Assembly: GCA_016198125.1 (NCBI GenBank)
Contig: JACQJG010000019.1
Location: forward strand, 1-61,911
From: Candidatus Iainarchaeum sp.
GTDB lineage: Archaea > Iainarchaeota > Iainarchaeia > Iainarchaeales > VGJJ01
Direction of reading: 5' to 3'
DNA length: 61,911 nucleotides
Shown here: piece after piece, positions 37,891 through 61,170 of the stretch
Numbering within the stretch: position 1 is the stretch's first letter
Layout: the number at the start of each line of letters is the position of its first letter
Notes under the pieces: model-generated
Seen by the model: only the letters and a program-made list of their open reading frames with translations
Told to the model about the DNA's origin: nothing
Databases searched by the model: none
Made by a program: the position numbers and the translations under genes

Positions 37891-37894
37891 TGGA

Positions 37895-38773: not shown

Positions 38774-38798
38774 AAAGGTTGAAGGCGTATCTTAGGGC

Positions 38799-40505: not shown

Positions 40506-40533
40506 AAAACTGCGCTTTCTTTAATAACCCCTT

Positions 40534-41532
40534 ATGCATTATTTGGGGTCAACGCAAATGGTGACAGCGTGGAGTTCAGGCGTTAAACTGGGAATTTTTG
40601 CGCTTGCACTTGGACTGCTGGTGGTAGCCATTAAAGTCCAGCAGTTGAATGCAGGGGAATCCAGCCCTTCTATGCACTGGCAACAAGGCATTCTTGCGCA
40701 AAACCCCGCAGTTTCACTTAAAGTCAATGAGGGGGCAAGCCAAGACTTTCCAAGCCACGTGCTCAGAAAGTATTATTTCAAAGAAGTACTCCAGCCCAAA
40801 AGAAACGAATACCAGTTGCTTGAACGCGCAAGCGAGTTTCTCAAAGTCCCCATTTCAACGCTTAAAAAAGAGTGGGGCATTGAAAGCGAGGAAGGCCTTT
40901 TTTCACGCTTGCCCGGGATTCCTATTGATTTCAGCGAGACCGTGTACGCGCTGCGCAGTACAGCCACGTATGCAAGCATTTCAGAAAGTTATTACGAGCA
41001 ACCCGAATTTTATCCTTCTTTTTTACTGGAAGGCATTCTGCGCTGGGCGTATCCAAGCCCTTCAGAAAACCCTCTAAATGGGTATGAAGGATATGCCATT
41101 GAAGAAGAAATTCCGCTTGAAGTGAACGCAGGGAAATCTTTTTCTGTGGACACGTACTGGCATGCCGCGTATGGCGTGAAAGCATACCAAGGATTTTCCC
41201 TTGTACGGGCTCCGAATGCGCCGTCTGAGATAAAAGTTCAATTTGAGTCTTCTGCCACGTTGCTGGCCCCGGCGTGGCCTGTATTTGAAAAAGGCTGGGC
41301 GCAAAAAGTGCGCGTAAAAGGCAGTATTCATCCGTCTGCTTTGCCAGGGCTTTACACCCTTGAACTGCAAGCCGTAAAACCTGCCGAACAAGAAATTAAA
41401 AACTGGAAAATACTTTACGGGATTGGATTGCCTGGAAAACAGTACACGGATGCAGCAACCCAGATTCCGCCTGCGCAGAACAGTTTAAAGGTGCTAGTAC
41501 GCGTACGTAACAAAGAAGGCGGTTCTTCATGA
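40534..41532 (+). CDS. Membrane-anchored surface protein, paralogue 3 of 3
   Basis: 332 residues with a single N-terminal span (VKLGIFALALGLLVVAIKV). The shared domain shows RKYYFKEVLQPKRNEYQLLE, YYEQPEFYPSF, YGVKAYQGFSLV, LLAPAWPVFEKGWAQKVRV and GLYTLELQAVKP. ATG 40534 sits just after a TATA-like CTTTAATAACC; ATG 40558 is an alternative. The stop overlaps the next gene's ATG (ATGA). Confidence 0.7.
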   Translation: MHYLGSTQMVTAWSSGVKLGIFALALGLLVVAIKVQQLNAGESSPSMHWQQGILAQNPAVSLKVNEGASQDFPSHVLRKYYFKEVLQPKRNEYQLLERASEFLKVPISTLKKEWGIESEEGLFSRLPGIPIDFSETVYALRSTATYASISESYYEQPEFYPSFLLEGILRWAYPSPSENPLNGYEGYAIEEEIPLEVNAGKSFSVDTYWHAAYGVKAYQGFSLVRAPNAPSEIKVQFESSATLLAPAWPVFEKGWAQKVRVKGSIHPSALPGLYTLELQAVKPAEQEIKNWKILYGIGLPGKQYTDAATQIPPAQNSLKVLVRVRNKEGGSS

Positions 41533-48101: not shown

Positions 48102-48989
48102 TCATGCGGTTCTAGTAGCAAACGCCTTCCAGCTTTTTTCCGTGTAGGAATGAACAAGTTTTTGCGCTATGATTTGGCTTTCGCATACCGCGCAAATGGT
48201 GGGCCCTGCGCCCGCAAGAATGGCATTCAAAACGCCTGGAACGCGTTTTATTTTTTCAATTTCCTGGAAAACGGGAAGGTATTCGGGTAATTTCAAGAAC
48301 TCGAATGCGTTGCCCATTTCACGCGCAACGGATTCCATGGAATGGGAATGAATGGCCGCACGCATGCGCTCCACTGAAGGATGCATGGAAACGTTTTCAA
48401 CGCGGAAGTGGGAGTAAATCCACTTGGTTTTGTCCGCAGGCACGTGAATGGGCGGCACTACAAACGCCAAAAACAAAGCCGGGCACGGTTCAATGGGGGT
48501 TATTTTTTCGCCTCTTCCCTGCGCCCTGCACGTGCCCCCATAAATGAAGAATGGAGCATCGCTGCCCAATACTGCGGCTTTTTCCGCCAATGCCTGTTTT
48601 GAAAGGTTCAACGCCCATGCCGCATTCAAAGCCTTTAAAACAGTGCCTGCATTGGAACTGCCTCCTCCAAGTCCTCCTGCGCTTGGAATTTTCTTGTCCA
48701 AAACGATTTCAATGCCCGGGGCTTTTTTTCCAGGGTTTTTTTGCACAAAGACTTCTTGCATTACTTGAACGGCCTTGAAGGCAAGGTTTTTTTCATCCGT
48801 TGGAATACTTGAGTCACTGCATTGAATGCGAATGGAAGCGGGCTCTCCACGTGGGTGAATGATAATGGTGTCATGCAATTCCAGTTCTTGCATGACAAAG
48901 TCCACTTCGTGAAAGCCATCTGAACGTTTGAATAAAATGTCGAGGATTAAATTGACTTTGGCTGGAGAGTTTAAAAGTTGCATGGGCAT
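48102..48989 (-). CDS. ispE: 4-diphosphocytidyl-2-C-methyl-D-erythritol kinase
   Basis: MEP pathway step 4: ATP-dependent phosphorylation of the 2-hydroxyl of CDP-methylerythritol. A GHMP kinase of 295 residues from ATG 48989 (TGATG overlap with the upstream gene). Motifs: LLNSPAKVNLILDILFKRSDGFHEVDF (motif with substrate Lys and His), the ATP loop PSAGGLGGGSSNAG and GSDAPFF with the catalytic Asp. The C-terminal AILAGAGPTICAVC is the third GHMP motif. Full-length and intact. Forms a leftward pair with the SnoaL-like gene, with ispH behind. Confidence 0.93.
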   Translation of the reverse strand: MPMQLLNSPAKVNLILDILFKRSDGFHEVDFVMQELELHDTIIIHPRGEPASIRIQCSDSSIPTDEKNLAFKAVQVMQEVFVQKNPGKKAPGIEIVLDKKIPSAGGLGGGSSNAGTVLKALNAAWALNLSKQALAEKAAVLGSDAPFFIYGGTCRAQGRGEKITPIEPCPALFLAFVVPPIHVPADKTKWIYSHFRVENVSMHPSVERMRAAIHSHSMESVAREMGNAFEFLKLPEYLPVFQEIEKIKRVPGVLNAILAGAGPTICAVCESQIIAQKLVHSYTEKSWKAFATRTA

Positions 48990-49381
48990 CAGGCAGTTGT
49001 TTTTGTTCTCCAATACTCATTCAAATAGGAAATTTTATTTCCTTTCATTTTTAGTATCATAATCCCAGCCATGCGGCCTTTTCTCCATTTTTGGTCGTGC
49101 GCCCATTTATGGGTGCTTTTGCATTCCCACTCTGCAAAACCCGTTTTACCGTCCAAAGAAATGTATGCTTTTTTCAGGCGAAATTGAATGCTCTTTGTAT
49201 TTTTTGCAACTACGCGTTCCCAAAAAGCCTTTATTTTTTTATGGCCCTGTAAGGGCGCGGCTAATGGACTTTCCTGATACACTGCATTTTTTATAAAACA
49301 GTCCAAAATCAGCTTTGAATCCCTTTGTTCCCAGGCTTTGCCATATAGTTCCATGACTTGTTTTACTTGGCGTGCATTCAT
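48989..49381 (-). CDS. NTF2/SnoaL-like protein
   Basis: 130 residues with the alpha+beta cone pattern: VMELYGKAWEQRDSKLILDCFIKNAVYQESPLAAPLQGHKKIKAFWERVV, later AEWECKS and ISYLNEYWRTKT. This fold can be an enzyme pocket (ketosteroid isomerase, SnoaL) or just a binding domain. Its stop overlaps the ispE start (TGATG), so it is translationally coupled to the MEP pathway kinase, which is unusual company. Its own start follows the end of ispH by about 20 bases on the same strand. Confidence 0.72.
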   Translation of the reverse strand: MNARQVKQVMELYGKAWEQRDSKLILDCFIKNAVYQESPLAAPLQGHKKIKAFWERVVAKNTKSIQFRLKKAYISLDGKTGFAEWECKSTHKWAHDQKWRKGRMAGIMILKMKGNKISYLNEYWRTKTTA

Positions 49382-49401
49382 GTACAGTACCTTTTTCTGT
49401 T

Positions 49402-50415
49402 TCAGTGCACGACATACGCAGGCCTGATAATTTCAGGCGTTGCATGATTTGCGCGGTGGTCGTATTCAATCAGCCAGTTCACCACGTCTTCAATGTCTTC
49501 GTCTGGAGTGGAAGCGCCGGCACCGATTCCAACGTGCTTTTTTCCTTTAAACCAGTCGTCTTTCAGTTCTTCCCTGCTTTCCACCCACTTCGTGTCAGTA
49601 ATTTTTGAGCATAATTCGTATTGGCGTTTGGTGTTCCCTGAATTCTTCCCCCCAATGATGATCATGCAGTCTGCTTTGTGCGCCAATTCTACTGCGCCGG
49701 GTTGCATTTCGTGCATGGCATTGCAAATCGTGTTGTACACGCGCACTTCCCGCGCCTTGTTTTGCAAAACCGAAACAATGGCTTCCACGTTGTCATTGGA
49801 TTGCGTGGTTTGGCTTACAATTCCAAGCTTTGGAATGGTGGGGTAATACAATTTCTCAACGATTTGGCCTGACTCGGTTTCGCGCATGATTTCATCCGTT
49901 GTAAAGTACTGTTTTTTGTCCAAAAAAAGTTTTTTGGCCTCTTCCGGGGTTTCAACGACAAGGGCGTTGGGCGCATAAGACTTAATGCCTTCCACTTCCG
50001 GGTGGCCGTGTTCTCCGATGACAATGACCTGGTACTTTGCATCGTACAATTCTTTTGCGGTTTTGTGCACCATGGTTACAAAAGGGCACGTGGTGTCAAC
50101 TACATTGAATCCTTTTTCCCTGGCTTTTTCCAATGCCTGGACTGGGACTCCGTGGGCGCGCATGAGCACAGTAGAACCGGAAGGAACTTCATCCATGGAC
50201 GTTAAGTGGGGCAATTTGGAGATCTTGCTTGCAGCATAGGGATTGTCTTCCACCAGTTTTCCACCCCTATTCACAATGTCTTGTACAACCCGTTGATTGT
50301 GCACGGGCATGCCATACAAGTACGCAGAACCTTTGGCAAGGGTTTCTTTGGACAGTTTAACGGAACGCTTAACGCCAAAACAGAAGCCTGCGGCTTTGGC
50401 CAGTTCAATCTTCAT
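49402..50415 (-). CDS. ispH: 4-hydroxy-3-methylbut-2-enyl diphosphate reductase
   Basis: Last MEP step: reduces HMBPP to a mixture of IPP and DMAPP using a [4Fe-4S] cluster. Three cluster cysteines are visible: GFCFGVKR (12), TTCPFV (near 97) and NTICNAM (near 200). Substrate-binding YGMPVHNQ, RAHGV, GEHGHPEV with the proton-donor Glu, and GGKNSGNT are also present. 337 residues, slightly longer than typical owing to a short C-terminal extension. It heads the leftward operon ispH-SnoaL-ispE and is divergent from dxr. Confidence 0.95.
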   Translation of the reverse strand: MKIELAKAAGFCFGVKRSVKLSKETLAKGSAYLYGMPVHNQRVVQDIVNRGGKLVEDNPYAASKISKLPHLTSMDEVPSGSTVLMRAHGVPVQALEKAREKGFNVVDTTCPFVTMVHKTAKELYDAKYQVIVIGEHGHPEVEGIKSYAPNALVVETPEEAKKLFLDKKQYFTTDEIMRETESGQIVEKLYYPTIPKLGIVSQTTQSNDNVEAIVSVLQNKAREVRVYNTICNAMHEMQPGAVELAHKADCMIIIGGKNSGNTKRQYELCSKITDTKWVESREELKDDWFKGKKHVGIGAGASTPDEDIEDVVNWLIEYDHRANHATPEIIRPAYVVH

Positions 50416-50485
50416 ATACTAAACCCCCACCCACGTGGTCTTAAACATTGGCCAAAAAGCATTTAAACCCTTCACGGTGATTGTC

Positions 50486-50506
50486 TAAGTGGGGTTCGAC
50501 CACTTA
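50486..50506. promoter_or_regulatory. Perfect inverted repeat in the ispH-dxr divergent region
   Basis: TAAGTGG, a 7-base spacer GGTTCGA, then CCACTTA: a perfect 7-bp inverted repeat. It sits about 20-40 bases after a CATTTAAACC TATA-like box (about 50458-50467) that could serve dxr, so it would lie at the transcription start or in a short leader. A candidate operator or leader hairpin controlling the MEP genes. It is not a tRNA: there is no acceptor or anticodon arm around it. Confidence 0.5.
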
Positions 50507-50549
50507 CATTTAATGCCAGGTAAACCCCTGCCTTTGAAGGAAATTGCCC

Positions 50550-51740
50550 ATGTCAGTCCAAAAACAATATCCAAAATGCCTGGCCTTGCTGGGCAGCACG
50601 GGAAGCGTTGGAACGCAAACCCTTGACTGCGTGCGCATGCACCCAAACGAATTCAAAGTTTTGGCATTAACGGCGCAAAACAACATTGACTTATTGGAAA
50701 AGCAGGCACGCGAGTTCAGCGTGGAAACTGTGGGTATTGCCAACCTGGAAAAAGCAGAAGAGTTTAGGCGGCGCGTGAAAGGAAAAATTCACGTGGAAGA
50801 AGGATTGGAAGGCATTTTGAAAATTTGTGCATATGAGGAAGCAGACACCGTGTTAAATGCCCTGGTGGGAAACATTGGGCTGCGCCCTACGCTCCATGCC
50901 ATGAAGCATAAAAAAAACGTGGCGTTGGCCAACAAGGAAACCATGGTAAGCGGCGGAGAACTTGTCATGGAAGCCGCGCGCAGGAACAAGGTCCATTTGG
51001 TCCCCATTGACTCCGAGCACTCGGCGATCTTTCAATGTTTAAATGGGGAAAACAAGGGTGAAATAAGCAAAATCATTCTCACGTGCTCGGGCGGGCCTTT
51101 TCGCGGAAAAAAGTTAAATGAATTGAAAGGGGTAACAAAAGAGCAGGCGTTAAACCATCCCACGTGGAAAATGGGGGGCAAAATAACAATTGACTCTGCG
51201 ACCCTCATGAACAAGGGTTTTGAAGTCGTGGAAGCCATGTGGTTGTATGGGGTGGAGCCTGAACGCATTGAAGTAGTCGTTCACCCGCAAAGCCTCATTC
51301 ATTCCATGGTGGAATTCGTGGATGCAAGCATTATTGCACAACTTGGCACGCACGACATGAGAACGCCCATTCAATATGCGCTCACGTATCCAAGGCGCAT
51401 GAAATGCCCTGCGACGCGCCTCAATTTGTTGGAAGCAAAACAGTTTACGTTTGAAAAACCAGACATGGAAACCTTTCAGTGCCTTGCACGTGGCTATGAA
51501 GCGGCACGCAGGAAGGGAACGACTGCCACGGCCATCAATGCAGTTAACGATGAATGCGTGGGCGCATTCCTTGATGGAAAAATAGAGTTTTTGGACATTC
51601 AGCGCACCATTCAAAAAGTGGCTGAAAAAAACAGGCATGTAACCCACCCCGTATTGGAAGACATTTTGAACGCAGATGAGTGGGCGCGCAGGGAAACAAG
51701 AAAAGAGCTTGGAATAGAACTTTCCATTCCTGTCAGGTAA
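50550..51740 (+). CDS. dxr: 1-deoxy-D-xylulose 5-phosphate reductoisomerase
   Basis: MEP step 2: NADPH-dependent rearrangement and reduction of DXP to methylerythritol 4-phosphate. From ATG 50550 (396 residues), behind GAAGGAAA. The Rossmann motif is LLGSTGSVGTQTLDC; the metal and substrate site is VPIDSEHSAIFQ; the flexible loop GGPFRG and ATLMNKGFEVVEAMWL follow; MRTPIQYALTYPRR is the C-terminal family signature. Complete. Single rightward gene, stop 10 bases from the end of the convergent FG-GAP gene. Confidence 0.95.
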   Translation: MSVQKQYPKCLALLGSTGSVGTQTLDCVRMHPNEFKVLALTAQNNIDLLEKQAREFSVETVGIANLEKAEEFRRRVKGKIHVEEGLEGILKICAYEEADTVLNALVGNIGLRPTLHAMKHKKNVALANKETMVSGGELVMEAARRNKVHLVPIDSEHSAIFQCLNGENKGEISKIILTCSGGPFRGKKLNELKGVTKEQALNHPTWKMGGKITIDSATLMNKGFEVVEAMWLYGVEPERIEVVVHPQSLIHSMVEFVDASIIAQLGTHDMRTPIQYALTYPRRMKCPATRLNLLEAKQFTFEKPDMETFQCLARGYEAARRKGTTATAINAVNDECVGAFLDGKIEFLDIQRTIQKVAEKNRHVTHPVLEDILNADEWARRETRKELGIELSIPVR

Positions 51741-51750
51741 GGCCTGCAAC

Positions 51751-53325
51751 TCATTTTAACACGATTTCATAGGGTTGCGTGGCTTCTAATTTTGAACCGC
51801 TTCCAAGAAAAGCCTGCACATACAAGGGCACAGAGGAAACTAGACTTGGAATGGAAACTGGAATCCAGGTGTTGGTGGGCAGGGAAATAACGGTAAGGGG
51901 GGTTCCAACGAAATTCGTGCACGTGTTTCCACTGGGTTGCCCTGCCTGGCTTGTTCCAATCAACAGCGTAGATGACGCGTAATTGGCCGACGTTATTTGA
52001 ACGTTAACAGTTTCTCCCGGTGAAGGAATGCCTTGAATGTGCAATGCAGGCGTATCATTGACCCCGCAGGCAAGACCATACGGTTTTAGGGTTCCATTGA
52101 AAAAAGTCCATGCCTGCAGGAGGCCGTTTTTATTTGCGGTTGCAATAAAAAAGTCATCGACTCCATTTCCCTCCACGTCTATATTTCCACTCACGGCTTC
52201 TCCAAACTCTGAATTGGATTGCGGGCCCTCAAGGCTTGCTAAAACAGCCCCATTCTTTCCGGATAACACGCGTGCCATGCCCTTAAATTGATTGGCCAGG
52301 GGCGCGCCTGCAAGGACATCCGAGAAACCATCGTTGTCTGCATCCCCTGCATCTGCAACTGCCTTGCCAAACCAGGAAGCAAAAGGCCCATCGGCTTTCC
52401 AAACAAGGGTTTTTGAAACGCCATCATACACGTATACGCGGCCGTTGTTGGAACTGTTAAAAAAAGGGGCTCCAACCACCAAATCTTCCACGTGGTCTCC
52501 GGTGGCATCTTCAATTTGCGCAATTGCCCACCCAAACCAGTCTTGTGCGGCCTCGCCATAAAAAGTGTGCAGGGGCAGAAACGTTTTCCCGGAAAAAACA
52601 AGGACCTTGCCTTCCGGGTTTTGATTGTATAACCCATACGGGGCTCCTGCTGCAAAGTCAGGAACGGCATCGCCATCAAAGTCTGAGAATGCCGTGAGCG
52701 AATACCCTAATTGGCTGGGAGTCAGCCCATTTATTTTTTTCACCAATGCATTTGTTTTTGGGGAAAAAATGTGCACGCTTCCTTCGTTAAAGGCAAGTAC
52801 ATCATGATAGGGGCTGCCAACCAGTATTTCTGGAAAACCGTCTCCTGTTAAATCGCCCATTCCTGCAACACTCCACCCAAAAATGTCTCCTGAATTTTCT
52901 CCGGAAGCGGAGAAAAGAACGCTTCCATTGGCCCCGGACAAAACGCGAACATACCCGGGACCGCTGGGCAGTCCGTCATTCCATTGGGGGGCTCCTACAA
53001 TGAGTTCAGGAACACTGTCCCCGCTGATGTCGGGTATTTTTCCCAATGCGTGCCCAAACCAGTCTCCATTGTTTTGGCCAAACCTTTCCCAAATGACTTG
53101 GCCGTTTTTTCCGGAAAAAAGAACGACTTTATTGGACGCAATGGACCCGGATGCAAGGTCAACAAACCCGTCAAGGTCAACGTCTGCCAAGGGCATCACA
53201 GAACGGCCAATGAATTCTCCGGGGGTTCCATTAACTTCCAGCAACATGCTGGGGGCTGGAAGCGACCACGCAGAAGAGAGTAAGAACAAAAACCCTGCCA
53301 TGCCAAGAAAATGCGCGAATTTCAT
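51751..53325 (-). CDS. Secreted FG-GAP (integrin-alpha-like) propeller protein
   Basis: 524 residues with a signal peptide (FLGMAGFLFLLSSAWSLPAP). About six repeats of the form FGxSVAGMGDLTGDGFPEILVGSP and GDADNDGFSDVLAGAP follow; each holds a DxDxDG-like calcium loop and together they form a seven-bladed-type integrin-alpha propeller. The last 110 residues are a separate beta-domain. An outer-surface or secreted adhesin. It splits the rightward MEP genes dxr and ispD but is on the other strand and has no evident tie to that pathway. Confidence 0.85.
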   Translation of the reverse strand: MKFAHFLGMAGFLFLLSSAWSLPAPSMLLEVNGTPGEFIGRSVMPLADVDLDGFVDLASGSIASNKVVLFSGKNGQVIWERFGQNNGDWFGHALGKIPDISGDSVPELIVGAPQWNDGLPSGPGYVRVLSGANGSVLFSASGENSGDIFGWSVAGMGDLTGDGFPEILVGSPYHDVLAFNEGSVHIFSPKTNALVKKINGLTPSQLGYSLTAFSDFDGDAVPDFAAGAPYGLYNQNPEGKVLVFSGKTFLPLHTFYGEAAQDWFGWAIAQIEDATGDHVEDLVVGAPFFNSSNNGRVYVYDGVSKTLVWKADGPFASWFGKAVADAGDADNDGFSDVLAGAPLANQFKGMARVLSGKNGAVLASLEGPQSNSEFGEAVSGNIDVEGNGVDDFFIATANKNGLLQAWTFFNGTLKPYGLACGVNDTPALHIQGIPSPGETVNVQITSANYASSTLLIGTSQAGQPSGNTCTNFVGTPLTVISLPTNTWIPVSIPSLVSSVPLYVQAFLGSGSKLEATQPYEIVLK

Positions 53326-53389
53326 GAAAAGCTTGCCTTTCCAAAATAATAAAAGGTTTTACCCAAATGGGCTTCCTTTCCTCACAGCG

Positions 53390-53401
53390 CTTTTAAAGAC
53401 C
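53390..53401 (+). promoter_or_regulatory. TATA-like box for the ispD operon
   Basis: CTTTTAAAGACC-like sequence lies about 30-40 bases before the ispD ATG at 53432, which itself is preceded by CCGGGGAAGC. It would drive ispD, yjbQ, the RuBisCO-like gene and ispF as one transcript. Confidence 0.45.
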
Positions 53402-53431
53402 TCGCAGAGAGTACAATAACCGGGGAAGCAT

Positions 53432-54136
53432 ATGACGGTGTGGGCCATTGTGGGAGCAGGAGGCATTGGAAAGCGCATGGGCGCTGGCAAGAACAAAGTG
53501 CTTTTGAAAGTGGCGGGAAAAGAAGTGCTTGCGCATACGTTACAGGTGTTCGAAGGCACGCGGGTAGTAGACAAAGTCCTTTTAGTCATTCACCCGGACA
53601 ATGCAATGGAAGCCCAAAAACTTGTGAAAAAGTACGCGTTCAAAAAAGTGCACGCCATTGTGCAAGGAGGAAGGGAAAGACAGGATTCTGTGTGGAACGG
53701 CCTTCAAAAGGCCAGGGAATTGGGCGCAGAAAAAGGAGACTTTCTTTGCATTCATAACGGGGCCAATCCGCTGGTTCAACCTGCAGAAATTAAAGCGTGT
53801 TTGGATGCTGCACGCGAAACCAAGGCGGCGGTGCTGGGTTTTAAGGTCAAAGACACTCTTCGAAGGGTAAGTGAAAACCTTGTGAGCCTTGGCACGGTGG
53901 ACCGCAAAGGATTGTGGGCCATGCAAACCCCGCAGTGCATTGAATTTTCTCTTGCATGGAACGCGTTTGAAAACGCAATGAAAGAAGGGTTTTATGGCAC
54001 GGATGATGTCCAACTGGTTGAACGAATGGGGCACCCCGTACGGGTGGTGGAATGCGGGTATGAAAACATAAAACTCACAACGCCGGAAGATTTGCGCATC
54101 GCGGAAGGCATTTTTAAACAACGCGCTAAAAAATAA
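53432..54136 (+). CDS. ispD: 2-C-methyl-D-erythritol 4-phosphate cytidylyltransferase
   Basis: MEP step 3: joins methylerythritol 4-phosphate to CTP. 234 residues. The nucleotide loop is IVGAGGIGKRMGAGKNKVLL (family AAGxGxRMG...K), followed by GGRERQDSVWNGL and the C-terminal QTPQCIEF, GTDDVQLVERMG and ENIKLTTPEDL, all expected. One region departs: where most family members read HDAARP, this has HNGANP, so the usual Asp and Arg of the metal/substrate site are changed. The rest is intact. Its stop overlaps the next frame (TAATG), starting the ispD-yjbQ-RLP-ispF operon. Confidence 0.88.
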   Translation: MTVWAIVGAGGIGKRMGAGKNKVLLKVAGKEVLAHTLQVFEGTRVVDKVLLVIHPDNAMEAQKLVKKYAFKKVHAIVQGGRERQDSVWNGLQKARELGAEKGDFLCIHNGANPLVQPAEIKACLDAARETKAAVLGFKVKDTLRRVSENLVSLGTVDRKGLWAMQTPQCIEFSLAWNAFENAMKEGFYGTDDVQLVERMGHPVRVVECGYENIKLTTPEDLRIAEGIFKQRAKK

Positions 54137-54147
54137 TGGAGGGCTTT

Positions 54148-54573
54148 ATGAAAAATGTTGTTTCATTCATTGAAATGCAAACCCGACAGGTAATGGAATT
54201 TCATGACATTACAGAAAAGGTCAGAGAAGCCGTAAAGAAAAGCAATGTAAAAGAGGGCCTTGTCAACGTGTTCACGCAGCACACCACGTGCTGTGTTAAA
54301 ATTAATGAATTTGAAGAAAAGTTAATGCAGGATTTTTACCAGTTTCTTGAAAAGCGCGTTCCCCAGTTTGAAAAATACGGCCACGACATTAACCCTGTTG
54401 ACGGAAGAAAGAATGCGCACTCGCACTTGAAATCCCTTATTTTGAACACGTCTGAATGCATTCCCCTGCAAAAAGGAGAATTGCTGTTAGGCACATGGCA
54501 ACGCGTTTTCTTTGTGGAATTGGACGGGCCAAGAGAAAAAAGAAAAGTCATTGTGCAAGTGCTTGGCGAATAG
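54148..54573 (+). CDS. yjbQ: YjbQ/UPF0047 family protein
   Basis: From ATG 54148, which has GGAGGG 4-9 bases before it (an ATG at 54136 overlaps the ispD stop). About 141 residues: VFTQHTTCCVKINEFE, KYGHDINPVDGRKNAHSHLKSLILNTSECIPLQKGELLLGTWQRVFFVELDGPR, the standard family signatures with conserved His residues that likely hold a metal. The in vivo role of this family is not settled; the E. coli protein has been reported to show thiamine-phosphate-synthase-like activity. Placement between ispD and a RuBisCO-like gene is notable, since DXP is also a thiamine precursor. Confidence 0.88.
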   Translation: MKNVVSFIEMQTRQVMEFHDITEKVREAVKKSNVKEGLVNVFTQHTTCCVKINEFEEKLMQDFYQFLEKRVPQFEKYGHDINPVDGRKNAHSHLKSLILNTSECIPLQKGELLLGTWQRVFFVELDGPREKRKVIVQVLGE

Positions 54574-54594
54574 GTTTTAAGGAAGTGAACGTGC

Positions 54595-55893
54595 ATGAAC
54601 AAAGAGGATATGAATGGCTTTCTTGCACTGGGAAAAGACCTGGGGCAGGAGTATGCCTTGTTTACTTATCTCATTGAAACCCCTATTGACCCTGTGACTG
54701 CAGGCGCGCATTTGTGCCAGGAGCAGAGCACGGCCCAATGGCACCGCGTGGGAGTGGAAGAGGATTTCCGGGAAAAATACGGCGCAAAAGTAGTGTCATG
54801 CAAAACACTGGAAGTGAATTCAAAGCCCAAGATTCAGGCATTTGTAGAAGGGGAAAAATACACGATTGCAGAAATAAAAATCGCGCACCCTACCATTAAT
54901 TTTGGCCCAAAAATCCCGAATCTTATCACGGCGGCTGCTGGGGAAGGGGCGTTTCACTGCCCGGCAGTGAACACCATCAAACTGGTCAACGTTGAATTGC
55001 CTGAAAAATACCTGCGCGCTTTTGAAGGCCCCAAATTTGGACTGAAAGGGCTGCGCCGGGTAATGAAAGTAAAAGACCGGCCTTTTTTCTTTGGGGTGGT
55101 AAAACCCAACATTGGATTGCCTCCAAAACCGTTTGCAGAACTTGCATACCAGGCATGGAAAGGCGGCTTGGACGCGTGCAAGGACGATGAACTGCTTTCC
55201 GATGTGGAATACTCGCCGCTCAAAAAAAGACTTGAACTGGTTTTGGAAAAAATGTTCAAGGCAGAACAGGAAACGGGCGAAAAGAAAATGTTTGTTGCCA
55301 ATATCACAGACGAAGTGGACCGCGTCCTGGAACTGCATGACTTGGTTGCAGGAATGGGGGGAAATGCAGTCATGGTTAATGCATTTCCTGTGGGGTTGAG
55401 CGGGGTGCGCATGCTGGCAAAAAAAACAAAAATACCCGTTGTGGCGCACTTTGATTTTATTGCGCCTTTCACGCGAATGCCATACTTTGGAGTTAAATCT
55501 GAACTTATCACACGACTGCAACGCCTGGCTGGATGCGATGCCATTATCATGCCCGGACTGGGAAAACGCATGCTGGTGGCAGAAGAAGAAGTCAAGGAAA
55601 ACGTGAAGGCGTGCTTGTATGACATGAAGAACATTCAGCCCTGCCTTCCAGTTCCCGGCGGCAGTGATTGGGCAGGGTCCCTGCCAAAAATGCATGAGGC
55701 TTTTCAAACGGTTGACTTTGGAATGGTGCCTGGAAGAGGCGTGTTTGGCCATCCTTTGGGGCCAGAAGGCGGGGCACGGAGTTTGCGCGAGGCGTGGGAA
55801 GCCCTGGAAAAAGGGGTTTCGCTGGAAAAGCATGCGGAAACGCATGAGGCTTTGCGCACGGCCATTGAGTGCTTTGGAAAAAAGAAGGAGTGA
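54595..55893 (+). CDS. RuBisCO-like protein (form IV), encoded within the MEP gene cluster
   Basis: 432 residues of RuBisCO large-subunit fold. Key positions: VVKPNIGL (Lys170 kept, but Asn172 where carboxylases have Lys), KDDE (Lys196, Asp198, Glu199: the carbamate and metal site kept), AHFDFIAPF (His285 kept, next residue Phe instead of Arg), AAGEGAF where the carboxylase Asn is expected, and no GKLEG loop 6 (MPGLGKRM instead). These changes, and the run EQSTAQWHRVGVEEDF, FGPKIPNLITA, ANITDEVD, VPGGSDWAGSLP and FVPGRG-like VPGRGVFGHP, match form IV RuBisCO-like proteins such as that of Chlorobium as I remember it, rather than archaeal form III. So carboxylation is not expected; enolisation/isomerisation of a sulfur sugar phosphate is. 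Overlapping operon context: 22 bases after yjbQ, 5 before ispF. Confidence 0.9.
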   Translation: MNKEDMNGFLALGKDLGQEYALFTYLIETPIDPVTAGAHLCQEQSTAQWHRVGVEEDFREKYGAKVVSCKTLEVNSKPKIQAFVEGEKYTIAEIKIAHPTINFGPKIPNLITAAAGEGAFHCPAVNTIKLVNVELPEKYLRAFEGPKFGLKGLRRVMKVKDRPFFFGVVKPNIGLPPKPFAELAYQAWKGGLDACKDDELLSDVEYSPLKKRLELVLEKMFKAEQETGEKKMFVANITDEVDRVLELHDLVAGMGGNAVMVNAFPVGLSGVRMLAKKTKIPVVAHFDFIAPFTRMPYFGVKSELITRLQRLAGCDAIIMPGLGKRMLVAEEEVKENVKACLYDMKNIQPCLPVPGGSDWAGSLPKMHEAFQTVDFGMVPGRGVFGHPLGPEGGARSLREAWEALEKGVSLEKHAETHEALRTAIECFGKKKE

Positions 55894-55898
55894 AAAGA

Positions 55899-56393
55899 GT
55901 GTACCGTATTGGGTTTGGAGTGGATTCTCACCGGTTTGAAGCTGTTTCAACGGGCAAAAAACTCATGCTGGGGGGCATTGAAATCCCCCATCCTGTTGGA
56001 ATGGAGTCGCATTCAGATGGCGATGTGATTTTACATGCCTTGTACAATGCGCTGGCCAGTGCCTTGGGAGAAGGAAGCATTGGCACGGCGTTTCCAGATT
56101 CGAAAGAAGAAAACCAGGGACGCGATTCCAAAGAATTCGTTGCACACATTCTACAAAAAACAAGACAAGAAGGCTACATAATTCAGAATGTGGGGGTTAG
56201 CTTGGAGTGCAAAACCCCGAAAATCAACCCGCATGAAAAGGCCTTCAAGGAGTCCATTGCACAGTTGCTGGGCATTAAAGTCGAACAGGTAGCCGTGCAC
56301 GCTACCACGGGAGAAAGCCTTACGGCTGTTGGAAAAGGAAAAGGCATTTACACCCAAGTCATTGTACTCTTGGAAAAACACCAAAAACGTTGA
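55899..56393 (+). CDS. ispF: 2-C-methyl-D-erythritol 2,4-cyclodiphosphate synthase
   Basis: MEP step 5: cyclises CDP-methylerythritol 2-phosphate with release of CMP. From GTG 55899 (164 residues), with AAGGAG 8 bases upstream; a GTG at 55890 overlapping the previous stop is possible. YRIGFGVDSHRF carries the zinc Asp and His, HSDGDVILHALYNALASALGEGSIGTAFPD the third His and catalytic loop, and ATTGESLTAVGKGKGI the C-terminal signature. Complete. Last gene of the ispD operon. Confidence 0.93.
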   Translation: MYRIGFGVDSHRFEAVSTGKKLMLGGIEIPHPVGMESHSDGDVILHALYNALASALGEGSIGTAFPDSKEENQGRDSKEFVAHILQKTRQEGYIIQNVGVSLECKTPKINPHEKAFKESIAQLLGIKVEQVAVHATTGESLTAVGKGKGIYTQVIVLLEKHQKR

Positions 56394-56447
56394 ATGACGT
56401 AAAATGATTTGGGGATTAACGTAAGGCTTTTAAATGGGGTCCGGTTG

Positions 56448-56460
56448 GAATATTTTATAC
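56448..56460 (+). promoter_or_regulatory. TATA-like box for dxs
   Basis: AATATTTTATACT lies about 25-38 bases before the dxs ATG at 56486, followed by GGGGGTGGGG. The 92-base gap after ispF is otherwise without features. It implies dxs has its own transcript. Confidence 0.55.
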
Positions 56461-56485
56461 TGTTTATTGGGGGTGGGGCCCTTCC

Positions 56486-58285
56486 ATGTATGAAACCAAA
56501 ATCACCACTAAACTATTGAGTAAAGTGAACAGCCCGCAGGACATCAAGCATTTTTCTTTCCCGAAACTCAATGAGCTTGCAGAGGAAGTGCGGGAAACGC
56601 TTATCTGCGTGTGCGCAAAAAATGGAGGGCACATTGGCACGAACCTGGGGGTCGTGGAGTTAACGATTGCACTGCATTACGCGTTTGATTCTCCAAAAGA
56701 CAAACTGGTGTTTGACACCACCCATCAAACGTACACGCACAAACTGCTCACTGGAAAACGGGAAAAGTTTGACACGATTTGCACGCCAAAAGGCATTCCG
56801 CGTTTTTCCGTGCGCTCAGACAATGTGCATGACTGCTGGGGCGCTGGACACGCGTCCACTGGTTTGAGTGCGGCCATGGGCATGGCCGAGGCAAGAAAGC
56901 GCAACAAAAAACAATACGAAGTAGTGGCCATCGTTGGAGACGGGGCCATGACAGGCGGCATGTGCTTTGAGGCTATGAACAACATTGGGTACAATCAAAC
57001 GGATTTACTCATTGTATTGAATGACAATAAAATGAGCATTTCTCCCAACGTGGGCGCTTTGTATGAGTACATGAAGCGCCTGTCCATGACCAGTGCCTCA
57101 GACAAGCCGCGCAGGGAAATTGGAACCATTTTTGAAAAACTGGGCATCAGGTATTATGGCCCGGTAGACGGACACGACATTGAAGGATTGGTGCAGGCGT
57201 TCAACGAATTAAAGCACATTCGCGGCCCCAAACTGTTGCATGTTCTAACAGAAAAAGGAAAGGGCATGCAGTACATGGAAAAAGACAAGGCCCGGTGGCA
57301 TGAACATGCAGCGTTTGACATTGAAACAGGGGATCCTGTAAAACCCAAAAGCCCTACCCTGGAAGGAGTGGCCGTGCAGGCGCTCATAGAACTTGCGGAA
57401 AAAGACGATTCCATTATTGGCATTACTGCGGCCATGCCGTCTGGAACTGCAATGGCCAAGTTTGGAGAAAAGTTTCCTGACCGGTTTTATGATGTGGGAA
57501 TCGCGGAAGAACATGCGACTACTTTTGCTGCCGGGCTTGCGTGCGAAGGCGTGAAACCATTTGTGTGCATTTACTCTCCTTTTTTACAGCGCGCATTTGA
57601 CCAAATCATGCATGATGTTTCATTGCAGGATTTGCCGGTGCGGTTCATGGTGCCCAAAGCCGCGATTACAGGCGATGGCCCCACCCAAGGAGGCATTTTG
57701 GATTTGAGTTATTTGCGCGTCATTCCTAACACCGTAGTGATGGCGCCAAAAGATGAGAATGAGTTGCGGCACATGATTAAAACCATGCAACTCTATGAAA
57801 AAGGGCCCATCAGCGTGCGCTACCCCAAAGGAAACATAAACTCAATTCCTGCTGAACCCTTAAAGGAAATTCCCATTGGCCAGGCAGAGGTTTTACGCGA
57901 AGGAAAAGACGTGGCGCTGATTGCCATTGGAAGCATGGTGGGGGACGCGTTAAAGGCTTCGGATCAATTAAAAGGAATGGGCATTGAGGCTGCTGTGGTA
58001 AACGCGCGCTTTGCCAAGCCCTTGGACGAAAAAACCATTATTCATGCGCTAAAAACGTGCGGTAAAGGCATTACCTTGGAAGAAAACACCCTTGTGGGCG
58101 GGTTTGGAAGCGCGGTGCTTGAACTCCTAGAAAGCAGGGGCTTGCAAGACATTCACGTGACGCGCATTGGCGCACCGGATGAGTACATTGGGTATGATGA
58201 TCCTAAGAACATTAAAGCCGGGTATGGAATGAATGTGGAAAGCATTGTGGCGCGCGCAAAGGAATGGGTTGCACGAACCAAGTAA
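56486..58285 (+). CDS. dxs: 1-deoxy-D-xylulose-5-phosphate synthase
   Basis: MEP step 1: thiamine-diphosphate-dependent condensation of pyruvate with glyceraldehyde 3-phosphate, releasing CO2. 599 residues. The ThDP motif is VAIVGDGAMTGG...NDNKMSIS; HIGTNLGVVELTIALHYAF and FDTTHQTYTHK are the N-terminal signatures; GHDIEGL follows; the second domain has the catalytic GIAEEHATTFAAGLA and PKAAITGDGPTQGG; the C-terminal domain is complete. Pyruvate and the TpiA product, encoded just downstream, are its substrates. Confidence 0.96.
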   Translation: MYETKITTKLLSKVNSPQDIKHFSFPKLNELAEEVRETLICVCAKNGGHIGTNLGVVELTIALHYAFDSPKDKLVFDTTHQTYTHKLLTGKREKFDTICTPKGIPRFSVRSDNVHDCWGAGHASTGLSAAMGMAEARKRNKKQYEVVAIVGDGAMTGGMCFEAMNNIGYNQTDLLIVLNDNKMSISPNVGALYEYMKRLSMTSASDKPRREIGTIFEKLGIRYYGPVDGHDIEGLVQAFNELKHIRGPKLLHVLTEKGKGMQYMEKDKARWHEHAAFDIETGDPVKPKSPTLEGVAVQALIELAEKDDSIIGITAAMPSGTAMAKFGEKFPDRFYDVGIAEEHATTFAAGLACEGVKPFVCIYSPFLQRAFDQIMHDVSLQDLPVRFMVPKAAITGDGPTQGGILDLSYLRVIPNTVVMAPKDENELRHMIKTMQLYEKGPISVRYPKGNINSIPAEPLKEIPIGQAEVLREGKDVALIAIGSMVGDALKASDQLKGMGIEAAVVNARFAKPLDEKTIIHALKTCGKGITLEENTLVGGFGSAVLELLESRGLQDIHVTRIGAPDEYIGYDDPKNIKAGYGMNVESIVARAKEWVARTK

Positions 58286-58291
58286 ACGTAA

Positions 58292-58309
58292 TTTTATACA
58301 TAACCTGTT
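58292..58309 (+). promoter_or_regulatory. tpiA promoter element, identical to one at 15869
   Basis: TTTTATACATAACCTGTT, with the TATA-like TTTTATAC about 25-30 bases before the tpiA ATG at 58324. The same 18 bases occur before the aCPSF2 gene. Confidence 0.5.
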
Positions 58310-58323
58310 TTTGGAGAAGCCTC

Positions 58324-59013
58324 ATGACTCACGAACGTTTTTTGTTTGTAAATTTTAAAGCCTATTTGGAAGCTTCTCACACCCGCGCCTTGGATTTGGT
58401 CAAAGCCATGGAAGACGTGCAGGAAACGCATGAAAAAATTACTTTGATTCCAGTAGTGCAAGCGTTAGACCTTGCCTGGTTGCAGGATAAAACATCCTTG
58501 CCCTTGTGGGGCCAGCACGCGGACTCCATTCAACCAGGAGCATTCACCGGGCACGTGCTGCCCGAGGCCCTGAAAATAGCGGGGGCAACAGGAACGTTGG
58601 TGAATCATGCAGAGCGCAAAGTCGATAATGCGGTGCTTGAAAGGACAATGGCCCGGTGCAGGGAAGCAACCCTTTTGATTCAGGCTTGCGCAGAAACTGT
58701 GGAACGCGCCATTCAAATCGCTTCCATGCCCGTTCAACCGAACTTCATTGCATTCGAGCCCCCGGAATTGATTGGAGGTACTGTCTCAGTGTCCAGTGCA
58801 CAACCGGAAATCGTGCAACGCTTCGTGGAAAAAGTAAGAGAACGCTCTCCAAATACCATTCCCATTTGCGGGGCCGGAGTTAAGAACGCCCAAGACGTGG
58901 CCAAGGCATTGGAATTGGGCACGCAAGGAATTTTAGTGGCCAGCGGCGTTGTGAAAGCACCCAATCAAAAAGAAGCATTGGAAGAATTGTGCAAGGGGTT
59001 CGGTCAACGTTAA
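58324..59013 (+). CDS. tpiA: Triosephosphate isomerase, archaeal short type
   Basis: Interconverts dihydroxyacetone phosphate and glyceraldehyde 3-phosphate; the latter is a substrate of Dxs. From ATG 58324, about 229 residues, the short archaeal length. VNFKAY has the catalytic Lys, LVNHAERK the catalytic His, and FIAFEPPELIGGT the catalytic Glu; GAGVKNAQDV and GTQGILVASGVVKA are the phosphate-binding loops. Placement directly after dxs suggests a substrate-supply role in isoprenoid synthesis besides glycolysis. Confidence 0.93.
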   Translation: MTHERFLFVNFKAYLEASHTRALDLVKAMEDVQETHEKITLIPVVQALDLAWLQDKTSLPLWGQHADSIQPGAFTGHVLPEALKIAGATGTLVNHAERKVDNAVLERTMARCREATLLIQACAETVERAIQIASMPVQPNFIAFEPPELIGGTVSVSSAQPEIVQRFVEKVRERSPNTIPICGAGVKNAQDVAKALELGTQGILVASGVVKAPNQKEALEELCKGFGQR

Positions 59014-59040
59014 GTGCAATTATATTTGTGGTGCCGGCAG

Positions 59041-59424
59041 TCACGCTTTTCGCTTGACCCATTCCACGTTTTTCATTTCGGCGAAGGCCTTATCCCCTGT
59101 AAGAAATTTTATTTTTTGCTTCAAGGAAATGGAATACCCAATGCAGTCCACGTATGAAAGATTCAGTTTAGGATTTTGCGCGCGCATTCTTGCCGCATTT
59201 TTGAATGCATTGTCGTCCATGTCAATTGTTTGGGGCAAAAAAGCGGCATAATACTTTTCGGCCAGGGCTTCATCAGCCTCCCTGAGGGTTGAATAATACA
59301 ATTCCATTAGATTGAGTTTTGTTGTGATAATCGTGTGCCGTTCAAAGTAGGAAAGGTAATCGGGATTGTCCTTGAGGTACTCTATAAGAGCAAATGTGTC
59401 GGCAAAATACTGCACTATCCCCAC
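59041..59424 (-). CDS. vapC: PIN-domain toxin VapC (second pair)
   Basis: 127 residues. The acidic sites are D9 (YFADTFAL), E42 (LMELYY), D93 (SYVDCIGY) and D115 (FLTGDKAF). Its start overlaps the end of the antitoxin gene by 10 bases. Clearly distinct in sequence from the pair at 14579. Convergent with tpiA. Confidence 0.85.
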   Translation of the reverse strand: MGIVQYFADTFALIEYLKDNPDYLSYFERHTIITTKLNLMELYYSTLREADEALAEKYYAAFLPQTIDMDDNAFKNAARMRAQNPKLNLSYVDCIGYSISLKQKIKFLTGDKAFAEMKNVEWVKRKA

Positions 59425-59630
59425 CCTTTCCGGATTTCATCCATGAGTTCCTGGGTGGGCTTTTTGCGCGGAAAGGTTCCGCGAAGGGTTTTAAGGGCGT
59501 CTATTTTTTGCACGGTGACAAGCAGTTTATCCAGGGGGTGAATTTTCTGCCGTTTTACGACCTCGTTATCAACAATTAAACTAATGGAATTGCCCCATTT
59601 CTTTGCTTCCACGGTTATTGTGTCACTCAT
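59415..59630 (-). CDS. vapB: AbrB-type antitoxin VapB (second pair)
   Basis: 71 residues: TITVEAKKWGNSISLIVDNEVVKRQKIHPLDKLLVTVQKI is the AbrB domain, and the tail TFPRKKPTQELMDEIRKGWG should bind the toxin. A 6-bp inverted repeat TATCATctaaATGATA lies right before the ATG, between it and a TATA-like stretch, where a VapBC complex could repress its own synthesis. Confidence 0.83.
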   Translation of the reverse strand: MSDTITVEAKKWGNSISLIVDNEVVKRQKIHPLDKLLVTVQKIDALKTLRGTFPRKKPTQELMDEIRKGWG

Positions 59631-59634
59631 AAAA

Positions 59635-59650
59635 TATCATCTAAATGATA
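59635..59650 (-). promoter_or_regulatory. Inverted repeat at the vapB start, candidate operator
   Basis: TATCAT, 4-base spacer, ATGATA, a perfect 6-bp inverted repeat 5 bases from the vapB ATG (59630). On the minus strand it follows a TATA-like TTATACTTATTG region at about 59652-59663. Confidence 0.5.
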
Positions 59651-59796
59651 CAATAAGTATAACTCGTATTTAAGTTTATGTGGGCATAAGCGCCGGTGAA
59701 TAAGCCAATCTCTTTTAACCCTCCACCCTGCGACCAAAAAGAAAACTCCTTTTCTGGCCCCCTCATAGAGGCAAGGATTTGAAGGGGGGTTTTAAT
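59651..59796. other. Intergenic region between vapB and the small membrane protein
   Basis: About 145 bases with no gene. The left part is A/T-rich promoter-like sequence for vapB; the right part ends with GAAGGGGGG, which precedes the TTG start at 59797. Nothing else recognised. Confidence 0.4.
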
Positions 59797-60024
59797 TTGG
59801 CGGATTCGGGTGAAAGCAACAAACGCTTATTTGAATTACTGGCACTCGCCATTGTAGGCGTGGCCATCATAGGAATCGCATTCGTGATAACAGGCAATCA
59901 AAGCCAGCAAAACAACAGTGCAGGGCAGGCCTTGGCCGGTGCCGTTGGTGGAACCAGCACAGCCCCCCACGAGAAGGCTTATAAGGGCACTGAACCCTGG
60001 AATCCAGCCGGAACACCGAAGTAA
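59797..60024 (+). CDS. Small single-span membrane protein
   Basis: From TTG 59797, 7 bases after a GAAGGGGGG site, 75 residues: ADSGESNKRLFELLALAIVGVAIIGIAFVITGNQSQQNNS. One N-terminal span and a short Asn/Gln/Gly/Thr-rich tail outside, ending EKAYKGTEPWNPAGTPK. No family recognised. Lies before fni with an 84-base gap. Confidence 0.55.
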   Translation: MADSGESNKRLFELLALAIVGVAIIGIAFVITGNQSQQNNSAGQALAGAVGGTSTAPHEKAYKGTEPWNPAGTPK

Positions 60025-60108
60025 AAACCTTGCGTGCCTCCTTTTTTTCTTTTTTGAGGCCATGCGCCTTAACAACGTTTTTTAACCTGGCCCTCTTTAA
60101 TTTAATGC

Positions 60109-61170
60109 ATGCCCGGCGAAAAAACCGAACAACGCAAAGCAGAGCATTTGAAGATTTGCGCGAAAGGGGATTTGGGCAAGATTACGTTTACAAACAAGAC
60201 AACAGGTTTTGAAGAAATTGATTTAATTCCAAGCGCGTTGCCTGAGATAAGCAAAGACGAAGTGGAATTGGAAACAGAATTCTTGGGCAAGCCCTTGGCA
60301 TTCCCGTTAATTGTAAGCAGCATGACTGGCGGTTGCAAGGAAGCGGGGGAAGTGAACAACGATATTGCGTCTGCGTGTGAAGAACTTGGAATTGGCATGG
60401 GCGTTGGAAGCATGCGCGCCATGATTGAAAACCCTGCACTGGCATACACCTACAAAGTGCGCGACGTGGCGCCAAACATTTTCCTGAATGGAAACATTGG
60501 GGTTTCACAGCTCAAAGGAATGGATTTGGAAAAACTCGCAGGGGCATTAAACGAAGTGGATGCAGACGCGCTGGCCATTCACCTGAACCCCGCCCAGGAA
60601 GCCGTGCAAAAAGAAGGCACTACAGACTTCAAAGGACTGGCAAAAGAAATTGAACGGACAGTGAAAAAACTGTCTGCCCCTGTTTTTGTAAAAGAAGTTG
60701 GAAATGGCATTTCACGTGAAACTGCACGGCTCCTTGTACAAACAGGAATTCAAGCCATTGACGTTTCCGGGGCAGGTGGAACGAACTGGGTGAAAATTGA
60801 TGCCATGCGCGGAAAAAATACAAATGCCGAATACTTGTATGAGTGGGGCGTGCCCACGGCGCTTGCGATCGTGGAAGCGCGTTCTGTATACAACCAAACC
60901 ATTCTTGCGTCCGGGGGGATTAGAAACGGCTTGGACATTGCCAAAGCCTTGATTTTGGGCGCGGATTTGTGCAGCATTGCACTCCCTGTGCTGCGTGCGC
61001 AAGCGGACGGAGGCAAGGAAGGCGTTGTAGAGTACCTGACCCGCATCCAAGGGGAACTGCGCACGGTCATGTTCCTTGTAGGGGCAAAGAACTTGAACGA
61101 GTTGAAAGACAAAAAAATCGTGGTGCACGGGAAAATGCGGGAATGGTTGAAGCAACGCGGAAAGGGTTGA
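60109..61170 (+). CDS. fni: Isopentenyl-diphosphate delta-isomerase, type II (FMN)
   Basis: Converts IPP to DMAPP using reduced FMN and Mg2+; needed to balance the two prenyl precursors. 353 residues. LIVSSMTGG is the FMN loop, ALAIHLNPAQEAVQKEG the conserved substrate and metal motif, VKEVGNGIS, IDVSGAGGTNW and LASGGIRNGLDIAKAL the barrel strands. This type is the normal one in archaea. Its closeness to the MEP genes gathers nearly all isoprenoid precursor steps in one region. Confidence 0.94.
   Translation: MPGEKTEQRKAEHLKICAKGDLGKITFTNKTTGFEEIDLIPSALPEISKDEVELETEFLGKPLAFPLIVSSMTGGCKEAGEVNNDIASACEELGIGMGVGSMRAMIENPALAYTYKVRDVAPNIFLNGNIGVSQLKGMDLEKLAGALNEVDADALAIHLNPAQEAVQKEGTTDFKGLAKEIERTVKKLSAPVFVKEVGNGISRETARLLVQTGIQAIDVSGAGGTNWVKIDAMRGKNTNAEYLYEWGVPTALAIVEARSVYNQTILASGGIRNGLDIAKALILGADLCSIALPVLRAQADGGKEGVVEYLTRIQGELRTVMFLVGAKNLNELKDKKIVVHGKMREWLKQRGKG

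What the first reader, a model, noticed from the sequence alone, without database searches (positions are those of the whole stretch)
54148..56393. RuBisCO-like protein embedded in an archaeal MEP-pathway operon
The gene at 54595 lies between yjbQ and ispF in one tight operon with ispD. Its residues (Asn instead of the second active-site Lys in KPNIGL, Phe after the conserved His, no GKLEG loop, retained KDDE) mark form IV, not carboxylating form III. Established knowledge: in Rhodospirillum rubrum a form IV protein isomerises 5-methylthioribulose 1-phosphate to 1-methylthioxylulose 5-phosphate, which a cupin enzyme converts to DXP, the first intermediate of the MEP pathway (methylthioadenosine-isoprenoid shunt). 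Inference: here gene order places an RLP beside the enzymes that consume DXP, pointing to a similar or new route in an archaeon. No cupin is in the window; YjbQ is an alternative candidate partner.
Basis: partly seen in the sequence, partly recalled or inferred. Interest (0 to 1): 0.92.

Follow-up and report, generated by a model that had tools for sequence, protein, structure and literature searches.

The report
Archaeal RuBisCO-like protein feeding isoprenoid synthesis
A tiny archaeon carries, inside its gene cluster for making isoprenoid building blocks, a relative of the carbon-fixing enzyme RuBisCO that probably recycles a waste sugar of S-adenosylmethionine chemistry into an isoprenoid precursor, which suggests a testable job for a protein family of unknown function long linked to photosynthesis.

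Summary
A 432-aa RuBisCO homologue (54595-55893) lies between yjbQ and ispF in an operon-like run ispD-yjbQ-RLP-ispF, inside a cluster with ispE, ispH, dxr, dxs, tpiA and idi-2. It is not a carboxylase by residues and not the R. rubrum-type (DeepYkr) RLP. It belongs to the form IV-Photo clade (50-52% identical to Chlorobium tepidum RLP and R. palustris RLP2; tree support 100/99), whose function is unsettled.

The order ispD-yjbQ-RLP-ispF does not recur in relatives, but the yjbQ-RLP pair does: in 37 of 40 proteobacterial loci and in Micrarchaeota. In six of nine archaeal RLP loci MTA phosphorylase and/or MtnA genes lie within about 4 kb. Archaeal RLP genomes are enriched in dxr (7 of 11 against 25 of 377). 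No cupin methylsulfurylase was found.

Best explanation: RLP (with YjbQ) acts after MTAP and MtnA and moves the keto group of 5-deoxyribulose 1-phosphate, from 5'-deoxyadenosine, to give DXP directly; MTRu1P is the rival substrate. Substrate, YjbQ's role and the upstream genes in this organism (not found in a 71%-complete genome) are unproven.

The parts
48105..48989 (-). ispE (CDP-ME kinase, GHMP kinase)
   Evidence: 50% identical to ispE of same-family genome G002; PF00288 5.6e-16
49402..50415 (-). ispH (HMBPP reductase, LytB)
   Evidence: PF02401 2e-82, TIGR00216 250 bits over cut-off 188
50544..51740 (+). dxr (DXP reductoisomerase)
   Evidence: TIGR00243 463 bits over cut-off 316
53432..54136 (+). 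ispD (MEP cytidylyltransferase), first gene of the tight run
   Evidence: TIGR00453 210 bits over cut-off 181
54148..54573 (+). yjbQ (UPF0047), conserved partner of Photo-clade RLPs; an alternative ATG lies at 54136
   Evidence: TIGR00149 134 bits over cut-off 68; directly upstream of RLP in 37/40 proteobacterial loci and in Micrarchaeota
54595..55893 (+). form IV-Photo RuBisCO-like protein, 432 aa
   Evidence: PF00016 7e-53; best PDB relatives C. tepidum RLP 1tel/1ykw (500 bits) and R. palustris RLP2 2qyg (476 bits), next 198 bits; tree 100/99
55899..56393 (+). ispF (MEcPP synthase); start codon GTG inferred from an AAGGAG site
   Evidence: TIGR00151 172 bits over cut-off 116
56486..58285 (+). 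dxs (DXP synthase)
   Evidence: TIGR00204 691 bits over cut-off 466
58312..59013 (+). tpiA (archaeal-type triosephosphate isomerase); start approximate
   Evidence: NF003302 225 bits over cut-off 132
60109..61170 (+). idi-2 (type 2 IPP isomerase)
   Evidence: TIGR02151 390 bits over cut-off 281

Best explanation
The RLP, with YjbQ, is the last step of a salvage route that turns the sugar left over from S-adenosylmethionine chemistry into 1-deoxyxylulose 5-phosphate (DXP), the entry compound of the MEP pathway. MTA phosphorylase cleaves 5'-deoxyadenosine (the by-product of radical-SAM enzymes; also MTA) to 5-deoxyribose 1-phosphate; MtnA converts it to 5-deoxyribulose 1-phosphate; the Photo-clade RLP shifts the keto group along the chain (C2 to C4, the reaction the R. 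rubrum RLP performs on the methylthio analogue), which on the deoxy sugar gives DXP itself, so no cupin methylsulfurylase is needed. YjbQ probably assists, for example by epimerising or cleaning up the product mixture. Shown: family membership, gene neighbourhoods, absence of a cupin homologue, co-occurrence with dxr. Inferred: substrate, product, direction, YjbQ's role, and that the upstream enzymes exist in this particular organism.
For: Archaeal RLP loci: G143 mtnA-yjbQ-RLP; G320 yjbQ-RLP-mtnA beside MTAP; G323 yjbQ-RLP, mtnA, MTAP; G341 yjbQ-RLP with mtnA and MTAP; G326 MTAP beside RLP-yjbQ; G044 mtnA ... RLP in one run. MtnA and MTAP confirmed by NCBIfam. Chance of mtnA or MTAP within 4 kb in 6 of 9 loci is about 1e-8 or less if loci were independent. 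All three archaeal RLP genomes first examined have dxr; over two phyla 7 of 11 RLP genomes against 25 of 377 others, Fisher 3.5e-6, kinship ignored. Window RLP sits between MEP genes. No cupin homologue in 8 of 9 archaeal genomes searched, a noise-level hit in G044. R. palustris RLP2 gave only traces of 1-methylthioxylulose 5-phosphate from MTRu1P after long incubation (PMC5893883), as expected if the methylthio sugar is a poor analogue of the true substrate. In Chlorobiaceae the RLP lies beside an LsrF-type thiolase (510 bits, cut-off 297), an SDR and an aldolase-SDR fusion; by my knowledge LsrF's substrate is the C4-oxidised form of both 5-deoxyribulose 1-phosphate and DXP. MTA phosphorylase (R. 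rubrum) and MtnA (M. jannaschii) are reported to act on the deoxy compounds too (PMC4958253, PMC6302742).
Against: mtnA and MTAP families were not found in G000 itself; it is 71% complete, and three same-family genomes (no RLP; 86-96% complete) also lack the mtnA family. Four of nine Micrarchaeota RLP genomes gave no dxr hit. The gene order in the MEP operon is found once. The RLP genomes of one phylum are related, so p-values are too small. dxs is present here, so DXP has another source. I found no published assay on 5-deoxyribulose 1-phosphate. Chloroflexi, spirochaete and Desulfobacterales members of the clade sit in other sugar-catabolic contexts.
Confidence: 0.42

Rival explanations
1. 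A true MTA-isoprenoid shunt with new parts: RLP isomerises 5-methylthioribulose 1-phosphate to 1-methylthioxylulose 5-phosphate, and YjbQ takes the place of the cupin, releasing methanethiol and DXP.
For: MTAP and MtnA neighbours; YjbQ conserved beside the RLP; no cupin homologue; dxr co-occurrence. RLP-linked YjbQs carry a D-x-R-x-N-x-H[S/A]H segment that the five solved YjbQs shown lack.
Against: R. palustris RLP2, which has yjbQ beside it (L109), has no detectable turnover with MTRu1P, and its deletion does not affect MTA metabolism (PMC5893883). No C-S chemistry is known to me for YjbQ.
Confidence: 0.2
2. The RLP works downstream of MtnA on deoxy- or methylthio-pentulose phosphates, but for disposal or catabolism (to C2 + C3 fragments), not for supplying isoprenoids; the place between ispD and ispF is incidental.
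For: Chlorobi operon with aldolase and LsrF-type thiolase; class II aldolase beside the RLP in L059 and L132; dxr not found in four Micrarchaeota RLP genomes.
Against: Position inside the MEP run in the window (about 1.4% by random insertion into the 12-kb cluster); dxr enrichment; idi-1 next to RLP in Chromatiaceae L088 and dxs upstream in L116, although these may reflect the photosynthesis gene cluster.
Confidence: 0.18
3. The yjbQ-RLP pair acts on a different substrate (for example in thiamine or another DXP-using route, given the secondary thiamine-phosphate synthase label of YjbQ); MtnA/MTAP neighbours are a lineage habit.
For: YjbQ's only named activity is the NCBIfam title; window genome has no mtnA or MTAP hit.
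Against: MtnA/MTAP lie beside the RLP in two archaeal phyla in different arrangements, hard to explain by one inherited arrangement.
Confidence: 0.17
4. A diverged form III carboxylase of the AMP pathway.
For: RuBisCO fold; KDDE and K175 kept; NCBIfam form III model scores 234 bits.
Against: Cut-off for form III is 497 bits; K177N, R295F, K334R, N123E changes; outside form III with support 100/99; no ribose-1,5-bisphosphate isomerase family member found in the genome.
Confidence: 0.02

Closest known systems
Form IV-Photo RLPs (Chlorobium tepidum RLP 1ykw/1tel; R. palustris RLP2 2qyg)
   Same: 50-52% identity, same residues at the key active-site positions, one supported clade; yjbQ upstream in purple bacteria
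   Different: Host is an archaeon without sign of phototrophy; sits with MEP genes; archaeal members branch at the base of the clade and several have mtnA/MTAP neighbours
MTA-isoprenoid shunt of Rhodospirillum rubrum / R. palustris (MtnP, MtnA, DeepYkr RLP, cupin methylsulfurylase)
   Same: In related archaea MTAP and MtnA with an RLP, and a DXP-using pathway in the same genomes
   Different: RLP of another clade (about 30% identity, KPQGL and KDDH in DeepYkr against KPNIGL and KDDE), no cupin, YjbQ instead
5'-deoxyadenosine salvage / DHAP shunt (phosphorylase or kinase, MtnA-type isomerase, class II aldolase)
   Same: Same upstream enzymes and the intermediate 5-deoxyribulose 1-phosphate (PMC6302742, PMC10986504)
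   Different: The proposed fate here is DXP through an RLP instead of DHAP and acetaldehyde; I found no report of that fate
Form III RuBisCO of DPANN archaea
   Same: Superfamily; RuBisCO homologues are common in relatives of this genome
   Different: Not in the same clade; catalytic residues replaced

Membership tests
Form IV-Photo RLP | Groups with C. tepidum RLP and R. palustris RLP2, outside forms I-III and DeepYkr | tested here: met
   phmmer 500/476 bits against 198 next; trees 100* and 100/99
Form IV-Photo RLP | Carbamate/metal motif KDDE and K175 kept; K177N, R295F, no GKLEG | tested here: met
Form IV-Photo RLP | yjbQ directly upstream (found here as the commonest context) | tested here: met
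MTA-isoprenoid shunt (R. rubrum type) | DeepYkr-clade RLP | tested here: not met
MTA-isoprenoid shunt (R. rubrum type) | Cupin MTXu5P methylsulfurylase | tested here: not met
   No hit in G000 (71% complete) or in seven other archaeal genomes; the query finds itself in R. palustris at 7e-109
MTA-isoprenoid shunt (R. rubrum type) | MTA phosphorylase and MtnA in the genome | tested here: inconclusive
   Absent from G000, 71% complete; present in G044 and several Micrarchaeota RLP genomes
MTA-isoprenoid shunt (R. rubrum type) | MEP pathway as sink for DXP | tested here: met
   dxr, ispD, E, F, H and dxs in the window; ispG not tested in G000
5-deoxyribulose-1-phosphate isomerase (proposed) | Converts 5-deoxyribulose 1-phosphate to DXP | not testable with these tools
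   needs an assay
Form III RuBisCO | Carboxylase residues and clade | tested here: not met
   234 bits against cut-off 497

The most novel reading that the evidence does not exclude
Form IV-Photo RLPs are 5-deoxyribulose-1-phosphate isomerases that make DXP from radical-SAM waste without a sulfur step: a second, direct entry into the MEP pathway, with YjbQ as helper enzyme, that arose outside photosynthesis (possibly in small archaea) and was later kept by phototrophs, whose bacteriochlorophyll synthesis uses radical-SAM enzymes.
Probability: 0.35. Interest if true: 0.93.

Novelty: new variant of a known kind. Interest (0 to 1): 0.8.

Why it matters
Photo-clade RLPs are known from phototrophs such as Chlorobium tepidum, have solved structures and mutants, but no accepted reaction. 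The archaeal neighbourhoods place them next to two known enzymes whose product would be the substrate, and in one genome inside the pathway that would take the product. That turns an open question into an assay with named compounds. If right, radical-SAM waste sugar is recycled into isoprenoids by a route not in the papers I could search, in archaea that, unusually, use the MEP pathway.

Tried and rejected
Rejected: form III carboxylase; plain R. rubrum-type shunt (RLP clade and cupin tests fail). The ispD-yjbQ-RLP-ispF order as a conserved unit: not found in G002, G032, G038 or any other RLP locus seen. idi-1 beside RLP in Chromatiaceae and dxs in Rhodomicrobium L116 were first read as independent support, then discounted because reaction-centre-like genes are near the RLP in several of these loci, so it may be the photosynthesis cluster. 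In the first tree the L152 row was a wrong-frame translation and L150 carried a spurious N-terminal extension; L152 was dropped and L150 trimmed in the second. Structure prediction was not used, because solved structures of the clade exist.

Full report
What is there. The window holds an operon-like run ispD-yjbQ-RLP-ispF (53432-56393) with gaps of at most 21 bases, followed by dxs and tpiA, with ispH, ispE and dxr just upstream and idi-2 just downstream. These genes are hit by curated models over their cut-offs, except that the RLP has no NCBIfam model of its own (only Pfam's RuBisCO models pass) and ispE was named from its 50% identity to the gene beside ispH in a same-family genome. The window is the whole contig C12 of an 846-kb, 71%-complete genome with one RuBisCO homologue. 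Same-family genomes have MEP genes but no RLP; in the one where the whole region was read (G002) the order is the same with a NUDIX gene between ispD and ispF. So the yjbQ-RLP pair looks like an insertion into, or replacement within, a conserved MEP operon rather than an assembly error.

Which RuBisCO. The best solved relatives are C. tepidum RLP (500 bits) and R. palustris RLP2 (476 bits); everything else is below 200 bits. Identity to these two is 50-52% and to the G044 protein 48%. A careful tree of 44 sequences puts the window with the Photo clade at 100/99 support, away from form III, forms I/II and the DeepYkr RLP of R. palustris; archaeal members (G424, G044, the window, Micrarchaeota) branch first and all bacterial members, phototrophic and not, nest inside with 99/98. 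The root is a drawing root, and the G424 and DeepYkr branches are long, so an archaeal origin is suggested, not shown. Residues: K175, K201, D203, E204 and H294 equivalents kept; K177N, R295F, N123E, K334R changed (spinach numbering assigned by eye).

Neighbours across the clade. One scan of GTDB genomes gave 80 loci. yjbQ is directly upstream of the RLP, with gaps mostly 0-30 bases, in 37 of 40 proteobacterial loci, in Myxococcota, Bdellovibrionota and a Chloroherpetonaceae MAG, and in every Micrarchaeota locus with enough sequence (in G323 the automatic count missed it because the RLP hit is split, but the coordinates show yjbQ 3 bases upstream). It is not there in Chlorobiaceae, Chloroflexota, Desulfobacterales and the spirochaete. 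RLP-linked YjbQs carry [VI]D-x-R-x-N-x-H[SA]H in nearly all of 48 sequences (the strict HSH version was counted in 31), while five solved YjbQs lack the D-x-R part.

Link to MTA and 5'-deoxyadenosine. In archaea the RLP has further neighbours: mtnA in G044, G143, G320, G323 and G341, and MTAP beside it in G320, G323, G326 and G341. MtnA models are over cut-off in all four proteins tested (414, 399, 309, 294 against 279); the MTAP model is over cut-off in two of three, the third just under. G044 has MTAP beside what reads as an adenine phosphoribosyltransferase on another contig, and G143 has MTAP on another contig. The arrangements differ between genomes, so this is not one copied block.

Link to DXP. 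dxr is rare in these archaea: 24 of 301 genomes of the Micrarchaeota phylum and 8 strong hits of 87 in the window's phylum. RLP genomes have it in 5 of 9 and 2 of 2. Fisher p = 2e-4, 0.007 and 3.5e-6 pooled; these ignore kinship and uneven completeness. G143 has a dxr-ispH-ispG run, named by reading the translations. A 2024 survey of archaea calls the MEP pathway almost absent in the domain (PMC11052028).

Mechanism. In R. rubrum the DeepYkr RLP converts 5-methylthioribulose 1-phosphate to 1-methylthioxylulose 5-phosphate and a cupin releases DXP and methanethiol (PMC4958253). R. palustris RLP2, the Photo-clade protein, shows no measurable rate on that substrate and no role in MTA metabolism, though traces of the same product were reported after long incubation (PMC5893883). 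No credible cupin relative was found in the archaeal genomes searched. The simplest reading is the same chemistry on the analogue that lacks the methylthio group: moving the keto group of 5-deoxyribulose 1-phosphate gives DXP itself. R. rubrum MTA phosphorylase acts on both MTA and 5'-deoxyadenosine, and M. jannaschii MtnA is reported to serve both routes (PMC4958253, PMC6302742). The Chlorobiaceae operon (aldolase-SDR fusion, LsrF-type thiolase, RLP, SDR) fits a 5-deoxypentulose phosphate as the common substrate, because LsrF acts on the diketone obtained by oxidising either 5-deoxyribulose 1-phosphate or DXP (my knowledge of the LsrF reaction; the family name was assigned by model, not by assay). 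Known fates of 5'-deoxyadenosine listed in a 2024 paper do not include DXP (PMC10986504), and text searches found no such proposal; most subscription papers were not searchable.

Limits. G000 has no hit for the mtnA or MTAP families. With 71% completeness this is weak evidence of absence, but for this organism the upstream half is not shown. Its same-family relatives, without RLP, also lack mtnA. The taxon of G000 was not disclosed; archaeal identity rests on the kinship ranks and on archaeal-type genes in the window. YjbQ's role is a guess.

Verdict. New variant of a known kind, with a sharp test.

Noticed in passing
window 48105-61170; L052, L053, L056, L159: A near-complete MEP pathway in archaea: dxr in 8 of 87 genomes of the window's phylum and 24 of 301 of the Micrarchaeota phylum, in operons where read, although the pathway is described as almost absent in archaea (PMC11052028).
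   Followed up: partly
L045:14445-19491 (G044): The RLP of G044 ends a tight run mtnA - malic enzyme - two fumarase subunits - RLP (named by reading the translations), an unexplained mix of C4-acid and salvage genes.
   Followed up: no
L075:6831-12152 and other Chlorobiaceae loci: The C. tepidum-type RLP lies between an LsrF-type thiolase gene and an SDR, after an aldolase-SDR fusion, in 15-20 loci; this looks like a deoxypentose-phosphate breakdown operon.
   Followed up: partly
L059, L132, L060, L065-L068: Photo-clade RLPs of Chloroflexota, Spirochaetota and Desulfobacterales sit with class II aldolase, RpiB-type isomerase, UPF0261-like, SorC-like regulator or sugar transporter genes, possibly a third function in the clade.
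   Followed up: no
L047, L048 (G100, G142), L049 (G138): A separate archaeal RuBisCO-like branch (KPCTGF, no GKLEG), in G100 and G142 beside a saccharopine-dehydrogenase-like gene, outside both form III and the Photo clade.
   Followed up: no
window 44315-47275 and 24103-27153: Two inteins with LAGLIDADG domains, in a DHH phosphoesterase and in a type II/IV secretion ATPase.
   Followed up: no
window 33112-43562: A run of large + strand ORFs (1592, 298, 335, 332, 677 aa) with no Pfam match at 1e-5.
   Followed up: no
window 54148-54573: yjbQ has lower G+C (41%) than the RLP (50%) and the MEP genes around it (47-50%).
   Followed up: no
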